Shown here piece after piece: positions 4,881 to 57,140 of a DNA stretch of 64,000 nucleotides (position 1 is its first letter; each line of letters starts with the position of its first letter). This DNA is from Thermothielavioides terrestris NRRL 8126. Its lineage: Eukaryota; Ascomycota; Sordariomycetes; Sordariales; Chaetomiaceae. The notes below the pieces were generated by a model. That model did no database searches, was not told the DNA's origin, and saw only the letters and a program-made list of their open reading frames with translations. The DNA is taken from contig NC_016458.1 of the NCBI RefSeq assembly GCF_000226115.1, positions 7,288,001 to 7,352,000 of the forward strand, in the 5' to 3' direction. A program made the translations under genes and the position numbers.

Positions 4881-8837
<3,957 letters not shown>

Positions 8838-45469: not shown

Positions 45470-45651
45470 TGTCGCGTGCTAGTGCACATGTGACTCCACT
45501 TGCTAGGCTCCCTACGCTTAGGAGGCATATATTAGCTCTGCCTATATATGTATATAGACCTCGGTGCTCCTCCCACCCTATATAAGAGGGGCACCTCCCT
45601 TAATATATATGTCTCTACATCCTATATAGCCCCACTTTACTGCTCTCCTTA
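45470..45651 (+). repeat. 5' LTR of copia E
   Basis: 182 bases, TGTCGCGTGC...CTCCTTA; the partner ends CTCCTCA, so the final CA has become TA by RIP. Contains a TATATAAGAGG promoter-like box. Confidence 0.88.
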
Positions 45652-45664
45652 GTTATAAGCCTAG
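45652..45664 (+). promoter_or_regulatory. primer-binding site of copia E, half-tRNA type
   Basis: GTTATAAGCCTAG directly follows the LTR. Undoing RIP-type changes gives GTTATGAGCCCAG, the complement of the initiator-Met anticodon arm CTGGGCTCATAAC. Copia and Ty5 elements are known to prime from such a cleaved half-tRNA rather than from the tRNA 3' end. Confidence 0.6.
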
Positions 45665-48600
45665 TTCGTATACAACACTTATAACAGCAGTATAGCCCAA
45701 TTGGGGCTATCCTTCTTCTTTTCTTTAATAACTACTTTAAGTCTTCTTAATCATCAACAACTCCTATAAGTTTATATCACCCCTATCGTTTAGTCTAAAC
45801 AACGTAGTACTTCTCAGTTTACTTTAAGATGCTTCTCGAAACTAAAAAAACCGTTATCGTTGCCGTTGTAGCGCTTCTAGCCCTCGATAGCCCTAAAGAC
45901 TAGCTAAGATAGATCTTTACTGTTCGCTAAGAGGCTAACAACTTATAAGTTTAGTATATTATCGACCTAGACACTGAGCTCGCTATAGAAGCTAAGATAC
46001 TTAGCCTTCCTATATAGCCTACCTAGGGTACTGCCTATTAAGTGGTCTAGGATCGCCATCTTTAGGCGTAGTACACTGCGCTATAAACCTAGAAGGCAGC
46101 CGATCCTAACACCTATAGCTAGGAGCCTTAGTCAATCGAGCCTACTAAGGAGAAGATCTACTATAAGTTTCTTAAGCTATATAAGGCGTTTTCGAAATCT
46201 ACTATCGATACTATAGTGTTCTATATAGTCAACAAGCTCTATAAGATAATTAATATATCCGTTAGCGACCGCTACGCCTATACTATATATAATATTATAG
46301 AGGCTAAGAACATTACTAGTACCTATAGGTTTATCTAAATACTATATAAGATTATTGTACCCTCCAATAGCACTACCTTTACTACGCTTACTAAAGAGTA
46401 TATAGCTATACTCGCTAGAGGTAGCTAGAGTAGTATCGAGCCTAGGACTTAGATTCTCAAATATATTTTAGTCCTCTACTATACGAAGGTAGCCAATATC
46501 GCTATAGTCACCGATACAATAGTAGTTACTACGTTCTTTAAGACTGTGCAAAAGCGCCTAGATCCCAAGTAGGCAACCTATACATTGAAGGACATTAGCG
46601 TAGCTAAGAAGCTCGATAGAAAAGGACTAACTCTCCTCAATTTAGCTCTCTTACTTAAAGCGATCCTCTAGGCTAAAGCGGTAGTCTACCTAAAGCTTAG
46701 AACCTACCCTATACTTTTAAAAGTATAGAATAGTTAGAAAAGCAGTTAGAAGCGTAAGAAAAACCGCGACTGCCTATATATACTAAAGACTTATCGCTAT
46801 TAATAGCTTCCCTTAGAGTATTAGCAACTTCGGTATACTCTAATAGGGGAATCCCTAAATAGTATAACGCTCTTAAGTAATATAATGAACAGAGTATACC
46901 AACGGTTCGCTAAAGAGCGCTAGAACAACCTTTAGATAGAGCTTTAAAAGCTTGGCTAGAAGATCTAAAATGTATTGTTAAACGTCAAGGCTACTAGTTC
47001 TAATAGTAGTATAGGTCCTTTATTTCTAGGAGCGCTCTAGGTATATACTATTATCGATCTAGTAATTATAAACAAGCTCAAAGGAGTATATAGTATATTT
47101 GTATCTCTTGAGTTTAACCTATATTTGCTTAGTAAGTACATTCTATTTAACAACTGTAGAGCGGTCAATCTTATTAATAATAGGGCTCTCCTTGTCCCTA
47201 GTACGTTTATTAAGACAAGCGGTAAAACTGTTGAGGCTAGTACTATATCCTTCCCTATCTCTAGCTATAGCAAATAGATCATTAAAAACGTTTTAAACGA
47301 CGTATATAGCCTAAAAACTAAGGACCTTGTTATAGACAACGTTGCTATTGTAGAGGGCTTTTACGTCAATATTGTCTCTAAGAGACACCTCTAAGTATAG
47401 GGCGCTTAGTACTATAGTCTAGATTATATATTGTGTTAGGGAACGTTGGAAAAGAGTATTGTACTTAAGCAACTAGTCGAGAAGTTTAACTTGACCTTCT
47501 TATAATGCAATACTCTTTCCTCCTACTCTAATGCTCTTAGAGTACTCCCTAGAAGCTTTGCTAGACTTATAACTATAAACGCTATAGTTATAAAGAACTT
47601 TAGGAGGGGCAGGCCTTTAAAGGACCTACTCCTAGAAAGAGAAGACCTAGCTACTCTCTAGTACATTAGAGCTAGTTATCTAAGTTCAGAGGCGCTAGAA
47701 TATCTTGTCTTAAACACTAGAGGTATATAGATTCGTAGGCCTTGTAGGCTAGAATATAAGGTATACGTATAGGCATATATAGAATAGGTTATTTCACGCC
47801 GCCTACTATTAAGGCCGTTACTATACCTATTTTAAAAGGTCTCTTAGAACCTATTCAATTTTCTAAGAGCGCTTAACGGCTTAAACTAGCTACTAGTTAT
47901 TAAAGACAAGTATAGTAGGAAGCTTTTTACAACTCTTCTTATATATAAGATATATAACAATGTATATAATAAGCTTATTCGCTTTGAATGCTAGGTGAAA
48001 CGCCAATTTAGGTTGCCCATTTACAAGATTAGATAGAACGGCGAACACTAGTGTTATTAGTATCAAAAGATATATTATATACAAGCTCTAGACGTAGAAG
48101 TAGGGCATCGATTTAGAGGTTACACCTTTGGATACTAAAGAGCCCAATAGTAGTTTAGAACGTATAGGCAAGGAACTTATTACTAAGAGTATCGCAATGC
48201 TTATAGGCGCTAGACTTCCTTAGAATCTATAGCTAGAATCGACAATTGTAGCTATATACTTATATAGTATTAGCCTAAGTCGCGCTTACAACTATTGCTC
48301 GCTAAACGAGGTGCTCGACTCTTAGTTTAAGCATTGGTTCTACTAGTATTAGCCTAGTCTAGTATATACGCTAACTGCCGACCTACGCCTAAACTAGAGC
48401 GGCATTTATATATATAGCTACCAAGTATACCTACTAATAAAGGAGCGCGAAAAGGGGATTGAGAGATATACTAGGAAGGTTAAACCTAGAGTATATATTG
48501 GGTATCTTATTAAATATAAGGCGTCCAACATTTATTATATCTAGGTACTAAAACTTAGGAAAATCATTACAATGTACAATATAACCTTTAATAAATATAT

Positions 48601-50577
48601 ATTCTACTAGAAAAGCGAAGAGTAGCTTAATATTCAATTAGTAGTAGTCGCTAAAAAGGTTGTTAAGCTTATTAAACTCCCTATAGAGCCCTAGAACGCT
48701 AAGGCAATGCCGTTCAGAGTTATAGATGCCTATAAAGACCCTATAACGGTTCCCAGCTCTCTAAGACATCTAGGGGGTATAGCTAAATAGGAACTAGAAG
48801 GGCAGGCTCCTCCCTACTCTCTATCTTGTCTAAGGGGTATAGAAGTACTTAAGTATTATAGCCAAAGTTCGGGTAAGGAGCCTACTAGTAGTCTTTATAC
48901 TCTAGAACCAACTCTAGAGCTACGCTAGGAACGCCTAGACGTATCTAAAGAGAGCGGCCCCCCTACTAATTACAATGCTAGCAGTGACAGTAGAACAGTA
49001 GGAACTATATTATTAAAGGCCCCTAATATAGTTATTAGAGACGCTAATAGCAACGTCGCTAGCAGTATAGCTAAGAGTACTAGCTAAGGTAGTATAATAG
49101 CAAGTACTACTATAGTCGATACTCCTAGTAGTGATAAAGAGGTCGATCGCCTTAGCGATTAGCTAGAGGCTCTAGACGACTAGGAAGACGCTTTAAACTA
49201 TAGTTCTTAGCCTAATTCTAGAACACTTATAGCCTAGCTAGCGAAGGAGAAGCGTAAGTATATATATAAGACTTATAGACCACCTACTTGTCAGTTAAGA
49301 CAAATCTGTAAATAGTTTCCTAGCGGCGGTATAGGTGGAAGTGGCGGTCTAGTATACTTCGTAGCCCTTATATACTACAAGGAGGGCATTGATATACTAG
49401 ATTAGTATATATAGCATTCGTTTAGCTATATATTTTTAGATAACTCTATAAACGCTTTATAGGAGGACAATAGTATCTAGCATTGTATACTATATATAGT
49501 TTTTATAGCGGTAGTTAGCTAATATTGTAATATATATCCTAGAGCAACGCTAAGTAGGCCTAAAGTACATTTCGACGACCTTGCTAAGCTTCCTAAGTGC
49601 TAGAAGGATCTTATTAACCACTCTCAAAGGCGTAAGTTTATAAAAGTGGCTAAGGAAGAGATTTACAATCTCGTCAATAAAAAGATATAGCGTAAAATAT
49701 AGTGTAAGACCTTTAAGGGGAAACTACTACCTCTAAAGTAGGTTTTTATCTATAAGTTCGATTAAGATAGCAACCTTAAAAAGTGTAAATCGTATATCTA
49801 CATTTATAAGGATCTTTAGGAGCTCACTACTCTACAAAGCACTTATATAGCTATACTTATAGTACGCTTGTTCTATATAATAATAGCTATCGCTATGTAG
49901 TTTGATCTTAAGGTTAAGCAATTCAACGTAGTATAAGCGTTCTTGAACGCTGATCTACCTAAGGGTATTATCTATAAGATGCCTAAGGGGTTCAAAGAGC
50001 CTAGATTTCTTATAGAACTGTAGAGAGCTCTATATAGCTTATAAGAGTCTCTATTGCTCTAGTACTAAGAGTTCTCCGATGTACTTTGGAAGCTTAGCCT
50101 TATAGCTTCGCCTAAGGAACTATACTTGTTCTTCGACTATCAACGGTATATACTTATACTATTCTATATAGATGACTATCTAGTCTTCTACTACAAAGAC
50201 TATATAGAAGAGGCTTAGAGGATTATCAATACTTTAAAAGCGAAGTACAAAGTATATAAGAAGGGGGACGTAGCTTAGTTCCTAGGTATTAGGGTAATCC
50301 GCGACTATATACAATGTAAGATCTAGCTCTACCTTGACCAGTATATTAAGAAGATTGCAAAGCGTTTTAGTCTTGTAGATCAAATCACCTTTCTAAGCAT
50401 CCCTCTCCCTATAATAGAGCTTCGTAAGTTCATTGGCATAGCTACTCGAGTATAGATCAAACTATACTAAGAGCTTGTTAGATCACTGCTCTATACTATA
50501 GTTGTACTATATATAGAAGTTGCGTTTCTAGCTTCGTTGCTCTTGTACTTTCTAACGAACCCCTTAGGAACACACAT

Positions 50578-50857
50578 TGTTACACGCAGTTGTAGGTCAC
50601 CTGTGGCCACCTATAGCCAACTGCGCAAGTGTAGGTCCACTGGGCCCACTGGGCCCTACAACAGCACTGGGCCCCACAACAGTGCACAGGCCACCTTGCG
50701 CACAGGCCACTACACTCCTATATTTAGGCAAGCACTTGCCTACATTCTACACTCTTGCAATATATCTATCTTACACTCCTCCGAAGCTCCTACTTAGTTT
50801 AAGTGCTCCGCTGCTTTGGCTAACGAGGTTAAGCAGCACCTACTTGTTCGTATAATA
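50578..50857 (+). repeat. 5' LTR of element A
   Basis: 280 bases, TGTTACACGC...GTATAATA. The last CA is TA, a RIP-type change compared with the 3' copy ending TATAACA. Confidence 0.9.
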
Positions 50858-50859
50858 AG

Positions 50860-50975
50860 TGGTGCCTACTACTGGACTCGAACCTATACGATAAACCGCG
50901 ATAAGACTCCTTTTTAAGGGAGCCAGTGTTCATTAATAGCGTGCCTAAGCAGTACCGCGTCGTATAGCTTAGGCA
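50860..50975 (-). other. extended primer-binding site / tRNA-like sequence of element A
   Basis: The plus strand begins TGGTGCCTACTACTGG. Its complement ends with a canonical tRNA 3' part: T-loop GGTTCGAGTCC (a perfect B-box), acceptor AGTAGGC, A and CCA. The complement also starts with TGCCTAAG, able to pair GCCTA with TAGGC, so the whole 116 bases look like a complete tRNA-like sequence, not only an 18-base primer site. No clean D-arm or A-box is seen. Confidence 0.5.
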
Positions 50976-51418
50976 ACTATACGTGGGCGTAGGTGCCCCA
51001 AGTGCCCTGCTAGGAAGCACTTGTGGTTTTGCTTACTTAGGTGGTCTCCAAGTATTGCGAAGCCCTCGAGCTCCTGAGACCTAACTTAGAGGTCAGTATC
51101 TAGGGCAACAACGTTAATCGCGACCTTCAACACTTCGTCGCCCCGGCTCGGCTCCCTAAGACTATGTCAATTGCGACCACTTTCCAAGACCTCGTCGCCC
51201 TGGCCCAGCTCCCATCCTTCCGACCGCTCCAACCTCCAACCGATCAATCGCTCCAATCAATCGCCTCGACTAGTCGCCCTGATCAAGGAACCTGACCGAC
51301 TAGTCGCCCTGATTAAAGAACCCGATAGGTAGATTGAATGGTTGGATGGTTGAGGTGCAAGATACAATGGACTTGCAAGCTGAGGACAGCTTTTCTATTT
51401 GTTTGTAGGGGGGGCAAT

Positions 51419-51698
51419 TGTTATATATAGTTGTAGGTCACCTGTGGCCACCTGTAGCCAACTATACAAGTGTGGGTCCACTGGGCCCACTGGGCCCTAC
51501 AATAGCACTAGGCCCTGCAACAGTGTACAGGCCACCTTGCGCATAGGCTACTACACTCCTATATTTAGGCAGGCACTTGCCTACATTCTACACTCTTGCA
51601 ATACATCTATCTTGCACTCCTCCAAAGCTCCTGCTTGGTTTGAGTGCTCCGCTGCTTTGGCTAACGAGGTCAAGCAGCAACCCCTTGTTTATATAACA
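51419..51698 (+). repeat. 3' LTR of element A
   Basis: 280 bases, TGTTATATAT...TATAACA, aligned end to end with the first copy and followed by CACAT. Confidence 0.9.
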
Positions 51699-52411
51699 CA
51701 CATCGATGTTGCAAAGTATATAATCTCCTACCTCTTTGGTATACGCTTCCTCGCTATTTAGTTCAAGGGTATACTATAGGATATTACTCCTATACAGATC
51801 CTACTTATTATAAGGGATATATCGTATATAGATAACCCTAATATATATAAATCGTTGTATAGCTACCTTATCTCTCTGTTTAGTAGGCTTATTCATTGGA
51901 AGGCTATACACTAGGATATAGTCACTACTTCGTCTATAGAGGCAGAGCTCCTCGCTCTATCTACTACAATATAGGAAACGATAGCGTTTAAGCGCTTCCT
52001 TAGCAATTTACAACTTGAGTTAGGTGTACCTTAGACTATATTCTATAATAATACGTAGACTATTCGCCTTATAGTAGGCGAGAACGAATATATTAGCACT
52101 TGCCTACGTTATATTGACATCTACAACATATAGCTACGTTAAGAATATACGAAAGGATCTTTTAAGGTTGTATACTTACTAACTATAGAGATACCTATAG
52201 ATAGGCTTACAAAGGTATTGACTCGCTAGAAGTTTAAACACTTTAGAGAGCTCCTCAACCTATAGGATATACGTTATATAGTTCAAGGAGACGATTAGGG
52301 GGACAGGAACGCAAAGTATAAATAAAAACGAACTAAAAACAGGAGCGTACACTAGTATAAAATAGACTAGGGGGTGCCTACACCTATAAAACAACAAACA
52401 AAAACATAAAA

Positions 52412-52829
52412 CTACTTACCGCCCTTCTTCTTCTTAGGGGTAAGCATAGCGAGCACCGCCATAGCTACACTACGCGCTAGCGCATCTAGGTCAAAGCCCA
52501 AAGCAGCCTCCTCCTCATCCTTATCCTCATCCTTGTCCTCCTCCTCACTCTCCACCTTCTTAGCCTTCTTAGCCTTCTTAGGGGGCGCTACACGCTTGGA
52601 GGGGGTCTTCGGCGCGGCGGGGGTCTTGGGCGTGGCGGGGGTCCTGCTACAAAGTGTTAGACACACAGATATACACATCGCATTGGCCAGGCAATCTACG
52701 GTATACTCACTTCTTACTAGCGCCAACGCTAGACTTGGAGGGGGTGGCCAAGAGCAGGGCAGGCTTGTTCTTAGCCGCCTTAGCGGCGTAGGCCTTCTCA
52801 AGGGCGGCGAGGCGTATAACGGACGGCAT
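52412..52829 (-). CDS. antisense lysine-rich accessory protein of copia E
   Basis: Two exons in sense order: 52829-52711 and 52643-52412, giving 116 residues (or 117 with the alternative TAG acceptor at 52647; the acceptor is a TAGCAG pair). Donor GTGAGT and a CTAAC branch site are textbook. The protein starts MPSVIRLAALEKAYAAKAAK, has TPATPKTPAAPKTPSK repeats and KKAKKAKK, then an acidic run (residues 71-85), a helix GFDLDALARSVAMAVLAML and a KKKKGGK tail. The K/A/P-rich part resembles histone H1 tails, hinting at nucleic-acid or chromatin binding; function is unknown. It has no stop or frameshift, although pol next to it is ruined, and is more GC-rich than its surroundings. It lies opposite in direction to pol, inside the LTR boundaries. 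Confidence 0.6.
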
Positions 52830-53230
52830 AGCTACTATTGTTGTTATTGATATTATTGTTGTTGCTAATGCTACTACTATTGCTCGTAGTCTATAAAGGA
52901 AGAGTTTAAGAGAAGGTTTAAGGCGTACTCACTACGATTATATACTTCTAGGAGTATAGCTATCGACTGGCCTACGACACTGCAGTATTGTCTACATAGT
53001 GCGAATACAACAATGGGCGACAATAGTAGGCGTATATTCAAGACGTTGGGCAATAATAGCTACAATGGCGTATACCCAAATGATTGCAACGCTCAATTAT
53101 ATAATATAAACCTACAATCAAGGCGACGCAATTCGAAATACAAGTCAATAGCACGCCTAAATAAGGGATAGGAATAGACTATATAGCGCAATTGGGAAAT
53201 ACATATAATACGATCAATAGCGCTCGCATT

Positions 53231-53296
53231 AATGTCAACAATAGCGCCCCTAAATGTCAACAATAGCGCCCCTAAATGTCAACAATGGAACCCCTA
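53231..53296. repeat. 22-base tandem repeat, three copies
   Basis: Unit begins AATGTCAACAATAGCG and repeats at 53231, 53253 and 53275; the third copy has three changes. It is about 400 bases upstream of the antisense gene of copia E, and could belong to its promoter region. Confidence 0.85.
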
Positions 53297-53517
53297 AATC
53301 TAACTATATACAACGTACTACATAGTTCGCCAACGTAGGTAGCTAGACAATGCTTACACAATAGCGTAGCAACACTTGCACAATAGCTACGATTATATAC
53401 AATAGTAGGATCAATACTAGAGGCTACTGTTTAATACGCCTAGCAAAGCGAGCTCTAGAGTCAGTGCCTAGTATATATATTCTATAGATAGCCTCTTACG
53501 AGCCTATCTAGGGGGTA

Positions 53518-53699
53518 TATCGCGTACTAATATATACGTGACTCTACTTGCTAGGCTCCCTACGCTCAGGAGGTATATATCAGCTCTGCCTACACATATA
53601 TATAGACCTCGGTGCTCCTCCCACCCTGCATAAGAGGGGTACCTCCCTCAATACACATGTCTCTGCATCCTGTATAGCCCCACTTCGCTGCTCTCCTCA
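53518..53699 (+). repeat. 3' LTR of copia E
   Basis: 182 bases, TATCGCGTAC...CTCCTCA; the first TG is TA by RIP. Preceded by a purine tract TAGGGGG and followed by the TSD CGTGT. Confidence 0.88.
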
Positions 53700-56459: not shown

Positions 56460-56741
56460 TGTTACACGAACAAAGTGGGTGCTACCCAACCTCGTCAGTT
56501 AAAGTAGCAGAGCACTTAGACCAAGTCAGAACTTTGGAGGAGTGCAAGATAGATGTTTTTACAAGAGCGTGAGATATAGGCAAGTGCCCACCTAAATATA
56601 GGAGTATAGTAGCCTGTGCGTAAGGTGGCCTATACACTGTTGCGGGGCCCAGTGCTGTTGTGGGGCCCAGTGGGCCCAGTGGACCTACACTTACGCAGTT
56701 GGCTATAGGTGGCCACAGGTGACCTACAACTACGTATAACA
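56460..56741 (-). repeat. 3' LTR of element B
   Basis: 282 bases, plus-strand TGTTACACGAAC...GTATAACA, preceded by the TSD ACTAT. Confidence 0.9.
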
Positions 56742-56947
56742 ATTGCCCCCCCTACAAACAAACAGAAAAGCTGTCCTCAGCTTGCAAATCCATTGTATCT
56801 TGCACCTCAACCATCTAACTATTCAATCCATTCAATCCACCTATTAGGTTCCTTGATTGGGGCGACTAGCCGGTTGGGTTCTTTAATCAGGGCGACTGGT
56901 CGAGGCGATTGATTAGAGCGATCGATCAATCGGAGGTTAGAGCAGTC

Positions 56948-57140
56948 GGAAGGATAGGAGCTAGGCCAGGGCGACGAGGTCTTTGGAAAAAGTAGTCGCG
57001 ATTGACGGTCAGAAGGATAGGAGCTGGGCCAGGGCAACGAGGTCTTGGAAAAAGTAGTCGCAATTAACGGTTAGAAGGATAGGAGCCAGGCTGGGGCGAC
57101 GAGGTCTTAGAAAGTGGTTACAATTGACATGGTCTTTAGG
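56948..57140. repeat. about 62-base tandem repeat inside element B
   Basis: Units starting near 56948, 57010 and 57073 each contain AAGGATAGGAGC and GCGACGAGGTCTT-type segments at spacings of 62 and 63 bases; a fourth, degraded unit follows. Element A has a shorter version of the same region. No coding potential. Confidence 0.8.

What the first reader, a model, noticed from the sequence alone, without database searches (positions are those of the whole stretch)
52412..52829. Intact, spliced antisense gene inside a RIP-killed copia element
Seen: within the LTR/TSD limits of copia E, between the end of pol and the 3' LTR, there is a two-exon minus-strand frame of 116 codons with textbook GT, CTAAC and AG signals and no stop, while pol is full of TAG. 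The product is K/A/P-rich with an acidic run and a short helix, like a small chromatin-associated protein. Known: some plant LTR elements carry extra, even antisense ORFs after pol; I know of no named copia family in fungi with an intron-bearing antisense one. Inference: an accessory gene that acts on element RNA, DNA or host chromatin, possibly spared from RIP because this segment is shared by few copies.
Basis: partly seen in the sequence, partly recalled or inferred. Interest (0 to 1): 0.78.

Follow-up and report, generated by a model that had tools for sequence, protein, structure and literature searches.

The report
Antisense accessory gene in fungal copia
A jumping-gene (copia) family in the fungus Thermothielavioides terrestris carries an extra gene on its opposite strand, found beside the main gene at 39 of the 40 places found; the gene is predicted to be spliced and likely makes a nuclear zinc-binding protein that would control the element, and the copy flagged here is a shortened relic of it.

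Summary
The window lies in Thermothielavioides terrestris. Its copia family has 19 young, near-identical copies and 20 old copies mutated by RIP (repeat-induced point mutation). All 19 young copies carry an intact antisense gene between pol and the 3' LTR: four predicted exons, 249 aa, acidic and Lys/Ala/Pro-rich, with a six-cysteine block. The antisense segment accompanies pol at 39 of 40 places; the exception is a 0.45-kb pol fragment.

Synonymous transversions exceed nonsynonymous ones (p = 0.0003), 9 of 9 exon indels are multiples of three, and a homologue exists in Trichocladium antarcticum.

The window copy lost about 510 bp in frame, including the cysteine block and two introns. It has no codon that RIP can turn into a stop, which largely explains its open frame.

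Best explanation: a spliced antisense accessory gene whose product likely acts in the nucleus on element DNA, working like Grande gene23 or HTLV HBZ, without shown kinship to them. Expression, splicing and function are untested. New variant of a known kind.

The parts
45470..53699 (+). old, RIP-mutated copia element; 182-bp LTRs 45470-45651 and 53518-53699; target-site duplication CGTGT on both sides
   Evidence: aligned to the young copy L009; LTR pair; duplication read
45828..52325 (+). dead gag-pol frame (limits by alignment to the young copy; interrupted by a nested insertion)
   Evidence: 87 stops in 1486 aligned codons; alignment
52711..52829 (-). antisense gene, exon 1, with its ATG (reads ATA in the 18 other old copies examined)
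52647..52710 (-). predicted intron 1 (64 nt; 67 nt if the acceptor at 52644 is used)
   Evidence: GT...CTAAC...TAGCAG; aligned in 19 old copies and the young one; no RNA evidence
52412..52646 (-). fused remainder of exon 2 and exon 4, ending in TAG
52579..52616 (-). deletion scar: about 510 bp (against window-type copies) to 533 bp (against the young type) missing: cysteine block, exon 3, introns 2 and 3
   Evidence: two-piece matches; young-copy positions 6006 and 6540 are joined here
52891..52932 (-). tentative 5'-leader intron (GTGAGT...TATAG)
   Evidence: sequence only; weak
53216..53299 (.). 22-bp repeats between the gene and the 3' LTR, possible control region (inferred)
   Evidence: two units in L009:7247-7290

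Best explanation
The feature is a truncated copy of an antisense gene carried by a copia retrotransposon family; the complete gene has four predicted exons and likely makes a 249-aa nuclear, zinc-binding protein that would act on the element's own DNA or expression. Shown by sequence: its place and orientation, its presence with pol at 39 of 40 places, an intact frame in 19 of 19 young copies, coding-type substitutions and indels, and a homologue in a second genus. Inferred: leftward transcription from a promoter between the gene and the 3' LTR (or in that LTR) and removal of the introns. Because the RNA that is reverse transcribed is the sense strand, antisense introns would not be spliced out of it and would survive each transposition cycle. 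Inferred further: nuclear entry through the Lys-rich blocks and DNA or chromatin binding through the six-cysteine block and basic tail, tuning transcription, silencing or integration, as proposed for antisense genes of plant elements and shown for HTLV HBZ. The window copy lost the cysteine block by an in-frame deletion; its frame likely stayed open because it has no codon that RIP can turn into a stop and because this segment was hit less.
For: 39 of 40 pol places have the segment downstream in antisense. 19 of 19 young copies intact. Transversions in at least 2 of 19 old copies fall 15/9/30 on codon positions 1/2/3, noncoding upstream 14/13/14; synonymous 22/295 against nonsynonymous 32/1205, p = 0.00032. 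Exon indels 9 of 9 multiples of three, introns 0 of 2, downstream 0 of 2 (17 old copies). Homologue P0005 in Trichocladium antarcticum, E = 1.7e-10, all six cysteines aligned. An annotated protein, P0002, uses introns 2 and 3 as predicted here. Branch and splice motifs present. Pattern of known antisense genes of LTR elements.
Against: No RNA or protein data. No Pfam family reached its cut-off; fold model poor and without a significant match, so zinc and DNA binding rest on the cysteine pattern and composition. Constraint is weaker than on pol (ratio 0.36 against 0.12). One sense frame over exon 4 shows the same synonymous excess (9/159 against 6/495); introns gave 10/5/1 over an arbitrary phase (p = 0.02); both upstream indels are also multiples of three. 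The place of P0005 in its own genome is unknown.
Confidence: 0.55

Rival explanations
1. Captured host gene: a host gene with introns was taken up at the DNA level in antisense and is carried as a passenger, without a role for the element.
For: Introns are in place, as in a host gene; a homologue exists in T. antarcticum whose setting is unknown.
Against: Present at 39 of 40 places, coding-type constraint, exchanged as a unit between sub-lineages, no non-copia relative found in this genome.
Confidence: 0.2
2. RNA regulator: the antisense transcript, convergent with pol, works as antisense or double-stranded RNA that dampens the element; the protein is secondary.
For: Gene and pol end tail to tail about 87 bp apart in L009, so transcripts would overlap (inferred); antisense RNAs of LTR elements are known (PMC7264820).
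Against: Codon-level constraint and triplet indels and protein-level similarity across genera are not expected of an RNA alone.
Confidence: 0.15
3. The window copy is a kept host gene: the short form is selected for at this locus after the element died.
For: Alone of the 19 old copies examined it keeps ATG, splice sites and an open frame; the deletion is in frame; RIP conversion is lower here than in its own pol (24/58 against 561/772, p = 1.8e-6).
Against: No codon that RIP can turn into a stop, so openness is expected; conversion is not significantly below the next copy (30/58, p = 0.35); no expression data.
Confidence: 0.06
4. Chance open frame in low-complexity DNA.
For: Lys/Ala/Pro/Glu/Asp codons hold few RIP targets, so an open frame survives easily; long open sense frames also cross this GC-rich region in L009.
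Against: Intact in 19 of 19 young copies, coding-type evolution, homologue in another genus.
Confidence: 0.02

Closest known systems
Plant antisense additional ORFs between pol and 3' LTR (aORF-3R): maize Grande gene23, rice RIRE2, Silene Retand, PvRetro13
   Same: [quoted passage not shown] PMC11963269 passages)
   Different: Fungal and copia here; three predicted introns (the word 'intron' occurs in neither review text); six-cysteine block; no named domain shared
Boty brtn (Botrytis cinerea)
   Same: Fungal LTR element with an additional antisense gene (title seen in reference lists, statement in PMC7264820)
   Different: Boty is grouped under BcGypsy1, i.e. gypsy, not copia; the brtn paper was not readable here and the sequences were not compared
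HTLV-1 HBZ / HTLV-2 APH-2
   Same: Antisense, spliced, at the 3' end; nuclear; said to escape APOBEC3G-induced nonsense mutations as this gene largely lacks RIP-stoppable codons (PMC4793531 passages)
   Different: Retrovirus of animals; HBZ is a bZIP protein, no bZIP match here; no kinship claimed
Fungal six-cysteine domains: Zn(2)-Cys(6) (PF00172) and DUF3716 (PF12511)
   Same: Order CxxC...C...CxxC...C; weak Zn_clus match in P0005 (E = 0.13); top Foldseek row is the Leu3 DNA-binding domain but at E = 2.8
   Different: No cut-off reached; spacing here C-x2-C-x12-C-x9-C-x2-C-x5-C, longer in the first loop than in Zn(2)-Cys(6) (recalled)

Membership tests
Ty1/copia LTR retrotransposon (the carrier) | LTRs with TG...CA ends and short target-site duplication | tested here: met
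   182-bp LTRs; duplications ACCTA (L009), ATACT (L010), CGTGT (window)
Ty1/copia LTR retrotransposon (the carrier) | copia-type RT (RVT_2) with integrase parts ahead of it | tested here: met
   L010: HHCC-like motif at 612, SH3_retrovirus 854-926, RVT_2 1296-1520 (E = 4e-32); gag_pre-integrs below its cut-off
Ty1/copia LTR retrotransposon (the carrier) | tRNA-complementary primer site after the 5' LTR | tested here: met
   13 nt complementary to the anticodon arm of tRNA-Met genes in this genome; internal-site priming as in Drosophila copia is recalled
Fungal GalEa clade of copia | post-LTR sequence CHSeq1, RT motifs QTDD and CQPEA | tested here: not met
   Post-LTR sequence is neither of the two main forms; YVDD present, CQPEA absent; a hairpin at that place is predicted
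Antisense additional ORF between pol and 3' LTR (aORF-3R) | antisense between pol and 3' LTR | tested here: met
Antisense additional ORF between pol and 3' LTR (aORF-3R) | present in most copies of the family | tested here: met
   39 of 40 places
Antisense additional ORF between pol and 3' LTR (aORF-3R) | conserved as a protein | tested here: met
   weaker than pol
Antisense additional ORF between pol and 3' LTR (aORF-3R) | transcribed from its own or an LTR antisense promoter | not testable with these tools
   no RNA data
Boty brtn family | sequence similarity to brtn | not tested
   brtn sequence not on hand
HBZ-like retroviral antisense factor | bZIP domain | tested here: not met
   no bZIP family among Pfam matches at E <= 1
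Fungal Zn(2)-Cys(6) (PF00172) | Pfam score at or above 21 bits | tested here: not met
   P0005 12.8 bits; no match for the T. terrestris protein
DUF3716 (PF12511) | Pfam score at or above 22 bits | tested here: not met
   No match at E <= 1 or E <= 10; the 10 places over the cut-off in this genome are at other loci

The most novel reading that the evidence does not exclude
The copia family carries a mutation-hardened antisense regulator, a fungal counterpart of HBZ: its codon make-up (4 of 250 codons can be turned into a stop by RIP, against 108 of 1790 in pol) helps it outlive the element's death by RIP. The window copy, stripped of its cysteine block and of every RIP-stoppable codon, is a still-expressed short form that works in trans as a dominant-negative brake on the 19 young copies, the role that Ty1 p22 plays by other means.
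Probability: 0.06. Interest if true: 0.88.

Novelty: new variant of a known kind. Interest (0 to 1): 0.55.

Why it matters
Antisense accessory genes of LTR retrotransposons have no established function (PMC7264820). Here is one in a fungal copia element, with predicted introns, a cysteine block, 19 intact near-identical copies and a 37-Mb genome, so that transcription, splicing and DNA binding can be tested directly. It also shows how a gene's codon make-up decides whether RIP can give it stop codons, and that the gene is exchanged between element sub-lineages, as an accessory module would be.

Tried and rejected
Chance frame: rejected. 'Spared because few copies share it': rejected; in the other old copies the segment is converted about as much as pol. 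DUF3716 or Zn(2)-Cys(6) membership: cut-offs not met. Fold route: the model of the T. antarcticum homologue, from a two-row alignment, is poor (mean pLDDT 58) and has no Foldseek match at E <= 0.001; not used. PDB sequence search: one weak match, LAP2 (E = 0.0084), over the acidic/basic stretch, read as composition; likewise Pfam Pox_Ag35 (below cut-off). GalEa clade: not met. Non-copia paralogue: only insignificant matches (E = 0.285; E = 0.115). Protein searches: the first scored only the 7996 candidates sharing most words, so distant relatives may be missed; the other two gave nothing new. A 22-base pattern search of the window found only the gene's own end. Paper searches for a fungal copia with a spliced antisense gene (listings, with passages read only in the papers named) showed none; one search returned no paper.

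Rows left out: of 20 old copies one (C5:546941-547138, one piece only) was not fetched. Searches used 18 old copies plus the window, several of them partial. One search dropped L027 and the window (17 old copies left). One search allowed up to 12 kb between pol and the antisense piece; the window and three old copies (C2:4363469, C4:2755552, C3:2404740) had more than 1.5 kb. In some searches the boundary used for the end of pol lay 22 bases before its true end in L009. Genome counts are lower bounds by the tool's own statement.

Full report
WHERE IT IS. The window is C2:7288001-7352000 of a 36,912,256-base, six-contig genome. Proteins identical or close to the antisense gene are named THITE_... 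of Thermothielavioides terrestris NRRL 8126, and their longest contigs have the lengths of C1, C2 and C5, so the genome is that fungus. From about 33 kb on the window is AT-rich.

THE OBSERVATION. The minus-strand two-exon frame is present as described. The acceptor is a tandem TAGCAG, giving 117 or 116 aa. The element limits are right: 182-bp LTRs at 45470-45651 and 53518-53699 with duplication CGTGT. Its pol has 70 TAG and 17 TAA in the 1486 aligned codons examined.

THE FAMILY. A DNA search of the own genome with 52380-52860 gave 77 matches, which sort into 39 copies, 19 young and 20 old with the window. Apart from the window, every copy matches in separate pieces about 500-555 bp apart, or (C5:546941) in one piece only; so the window copy carries a deletion. 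The 19 young copies give identical scores. L009 and L010, two of them, are 7.6-kb elements with identical 182-bp LTR pairs. L010 has an open gag-pol frame (1789 aa from its first ATG); L009 and three others have 22 extra bases in pol, which in L009 break the frame. A pol probe gave 40 places; 39 have the antisense segment downstream on the expected strand within 12 kb, and the exception is a 0.45-kb pol fragment.

THE COMPLETE GENE. In L009 the exons are 6862-6744, 6680-6456, 6408-6333 and 6278-5949, the predicted introns 63, 47 and 54 nt, the product 249 aa. It ends tail to tail with pol, about 87 bp from the pol stop. The leader before the ATG is a CAA repeat. The protein has a Lys/Ala/Pro-rich N-terminus, a Ser/Glu run, the block C-x2-C-x12-C-x9-C-x2-C-x5-C, a less biased stretch, acidic runs, KKSKKAKKAKK and a tail PKKKKGGK (pI 9.17). 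In 19 of 19 young copies it is intact; they form two groups, 13 and 6, that differ by one base. The annotated 165-aa protein P0002 starts inside exon 2 and uses introns 2 and 3 exactly as placed here; P0003 and P0004 are diverged annotated models on C2 and C5.

IS IT A GENE? RIP makes transitions, so I counted transversions only, those seen in at least two of 19 old copies (18 plus the window). By codon position 1/2/3: gene 15/9/30; pol, first part, 11/12/57, second part 0/2/9; upstream noncoding 14/13/14 (p = 0.0015 for the gene, 5.7e-12 for the first part of pol, 0.98 upstream). Synonymous against nonsynonymous: 22/295 against 32/1205 (p = 0.00032); pol 53/1721 against 27/7195. Against this: the introns gave 10/5/1 over an arbitrary phase (p = 0.02), and over exon 4 one sense frame shows the same excess (9/159 against 6/495, p = 0.0031). 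Distinct indels in 17 old copies: exons 9 of 9 multiples of three, introns 0 of 2, downstream 0 of 2, upstream 2 of 2 in the CAA leader. Six of the nine lie in exon 4, whose Lys/Asp/Glu codons are repetitive, where triplet slippage is easy and one event may be counted twice. Independent support is P0005 of Trichocladium antarcticum: E = 1.7e-10 against 5.8 billion sequences, 36% identity over 161 columns, all six cysteines aligned, a similar layout. Its place in that genome could not be examined.

RIP. Counting CA/TG sites of the young copy that read TA in an old copy, the antisense segment of the 18 other old copies is converted about as much as pol. In 18 of 18 the ATG reads ATA, the second donor is lost, and 4 to 6 in-frame stops are present. 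The window copy keeps ATG, GT and AG and has no stop. Three things bear on this. The gene has few codons that RIP can turn into a stop: 4 of 250, against 108 of 1790 in pol (p = 0.0017). All four lie in the part missing from the window copy, whose 118 codons contain none. And the window segment is less converted, 24/58 against 561/772 in its own pol (p = 1.8e-6); the 18 others have 30 to 50 converted of the same 57-58 sites, and the lowest of them, 30/58, is not significantly above it (p = 0.35). The deletion is in frame, a one-in-three chance. I read the window copy as a lucky remnant, with a kept short form as an open but unlikely alternative.

MOSAICS. Transversion distances show diverged versions of the antisense gene, 42 to 74 per 1000 between the young type and the window type (window, L011-L014, L018), in elements whose RT region differs by 8 to 16 per 1000. 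L020, L027 and L028 have a pol nearer the window type but the young-type antisense gene (5, 11 and 13 per 1000 from it); L027 and L028 are window-type again upstream of the gene. So the gene, or a segment around it, is exchanged between sub-lineages, as expected of template switching or gene conversion (inference). L027 is a rearranged copy, so its row is less safe.

HOW IT LIKELY WORKS. Introns antisense to the genomic RNA would not be removed when that RNA is copied, so a gene with introns can persist in this orientation (general principle; inference here). The likely course: a promoter between the gene and the 3' LTR, where 22-bp repeats lie, or in the LTR, drives a spliced mRNA; the basic protein enters the nucleus; the cysteine block binds zinc and DNA or chromatin and tunes element expression, silencing or integration. 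None of these steps is shown.

WHAT IS KNOWN. [quoted passage not shown] passages of PMC11963269, and PMC8365987). HTLV HBZ is spliced, antisense and nuclear, and is said to evade APOBEC3G-induced nonsense mutations (PMC4793531 passages). In the survey of fungal copia PMC5445492 (passages and section 10 read) the word 'antisense' does not occur in the main text. Ty1 p22 was seen in the abstract only (PMC4599808). PMC5408684 was seen in passages and gave no antisense gene. In the listings I found no fungal copia with a spliced antisense gene; most subscription papers are not held, among them the brtn paper.

VERDICT. Observation confirmed; interpretation partly supported; a new variant (fungal, copia, predicted introns, six-cysteine block) of the known kind 'antisense accessory gene of an LTR element'.

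Noticed in passing
window 50578-51698: A 1.12-kb non-autonomous LTR-type element (280-bp terminal repeats, 5-bp duplication CACAT) is nested in the copia pol; a related inverted stretch lies at 56473-56988.
   Followed up: partly
L009, L010, L040-L056: 19 near-identical young copia copies without RIP stand beside 20 heavily mutated ones, so the last burst seems to postdate the last RIP of this family.
   Followed up: partly
L009 pol; also C2:8402700, C1:7734345, C1:4577146: Four of the 19 young copies have the same 22 extra bases in pol, which break the frame in L009, yet they multiplied, which suggests help in trans from open copies.
   Followed up: no
L020, L027, L028: Mosaic old copies: pol nearer the window type with the young-type antisense gene.
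   Followed up: partly
L009:293-305: The 13 nt after the 5' LTR are complementary to the anticodon arm of tRNA-Met and also form a hairpin with downstream sequence.
   Followed up: partly
window 53216-53299; L009:7247-7290: 22-bp tandem repeats between the antisense gene and the 3' LTR, three or more units in the window and two in the young copy.
   Followed up: no
window 52891-52932; same place in L009: A possible 5'-leader intron upstream of the antisense ATG.
   Followed up: no
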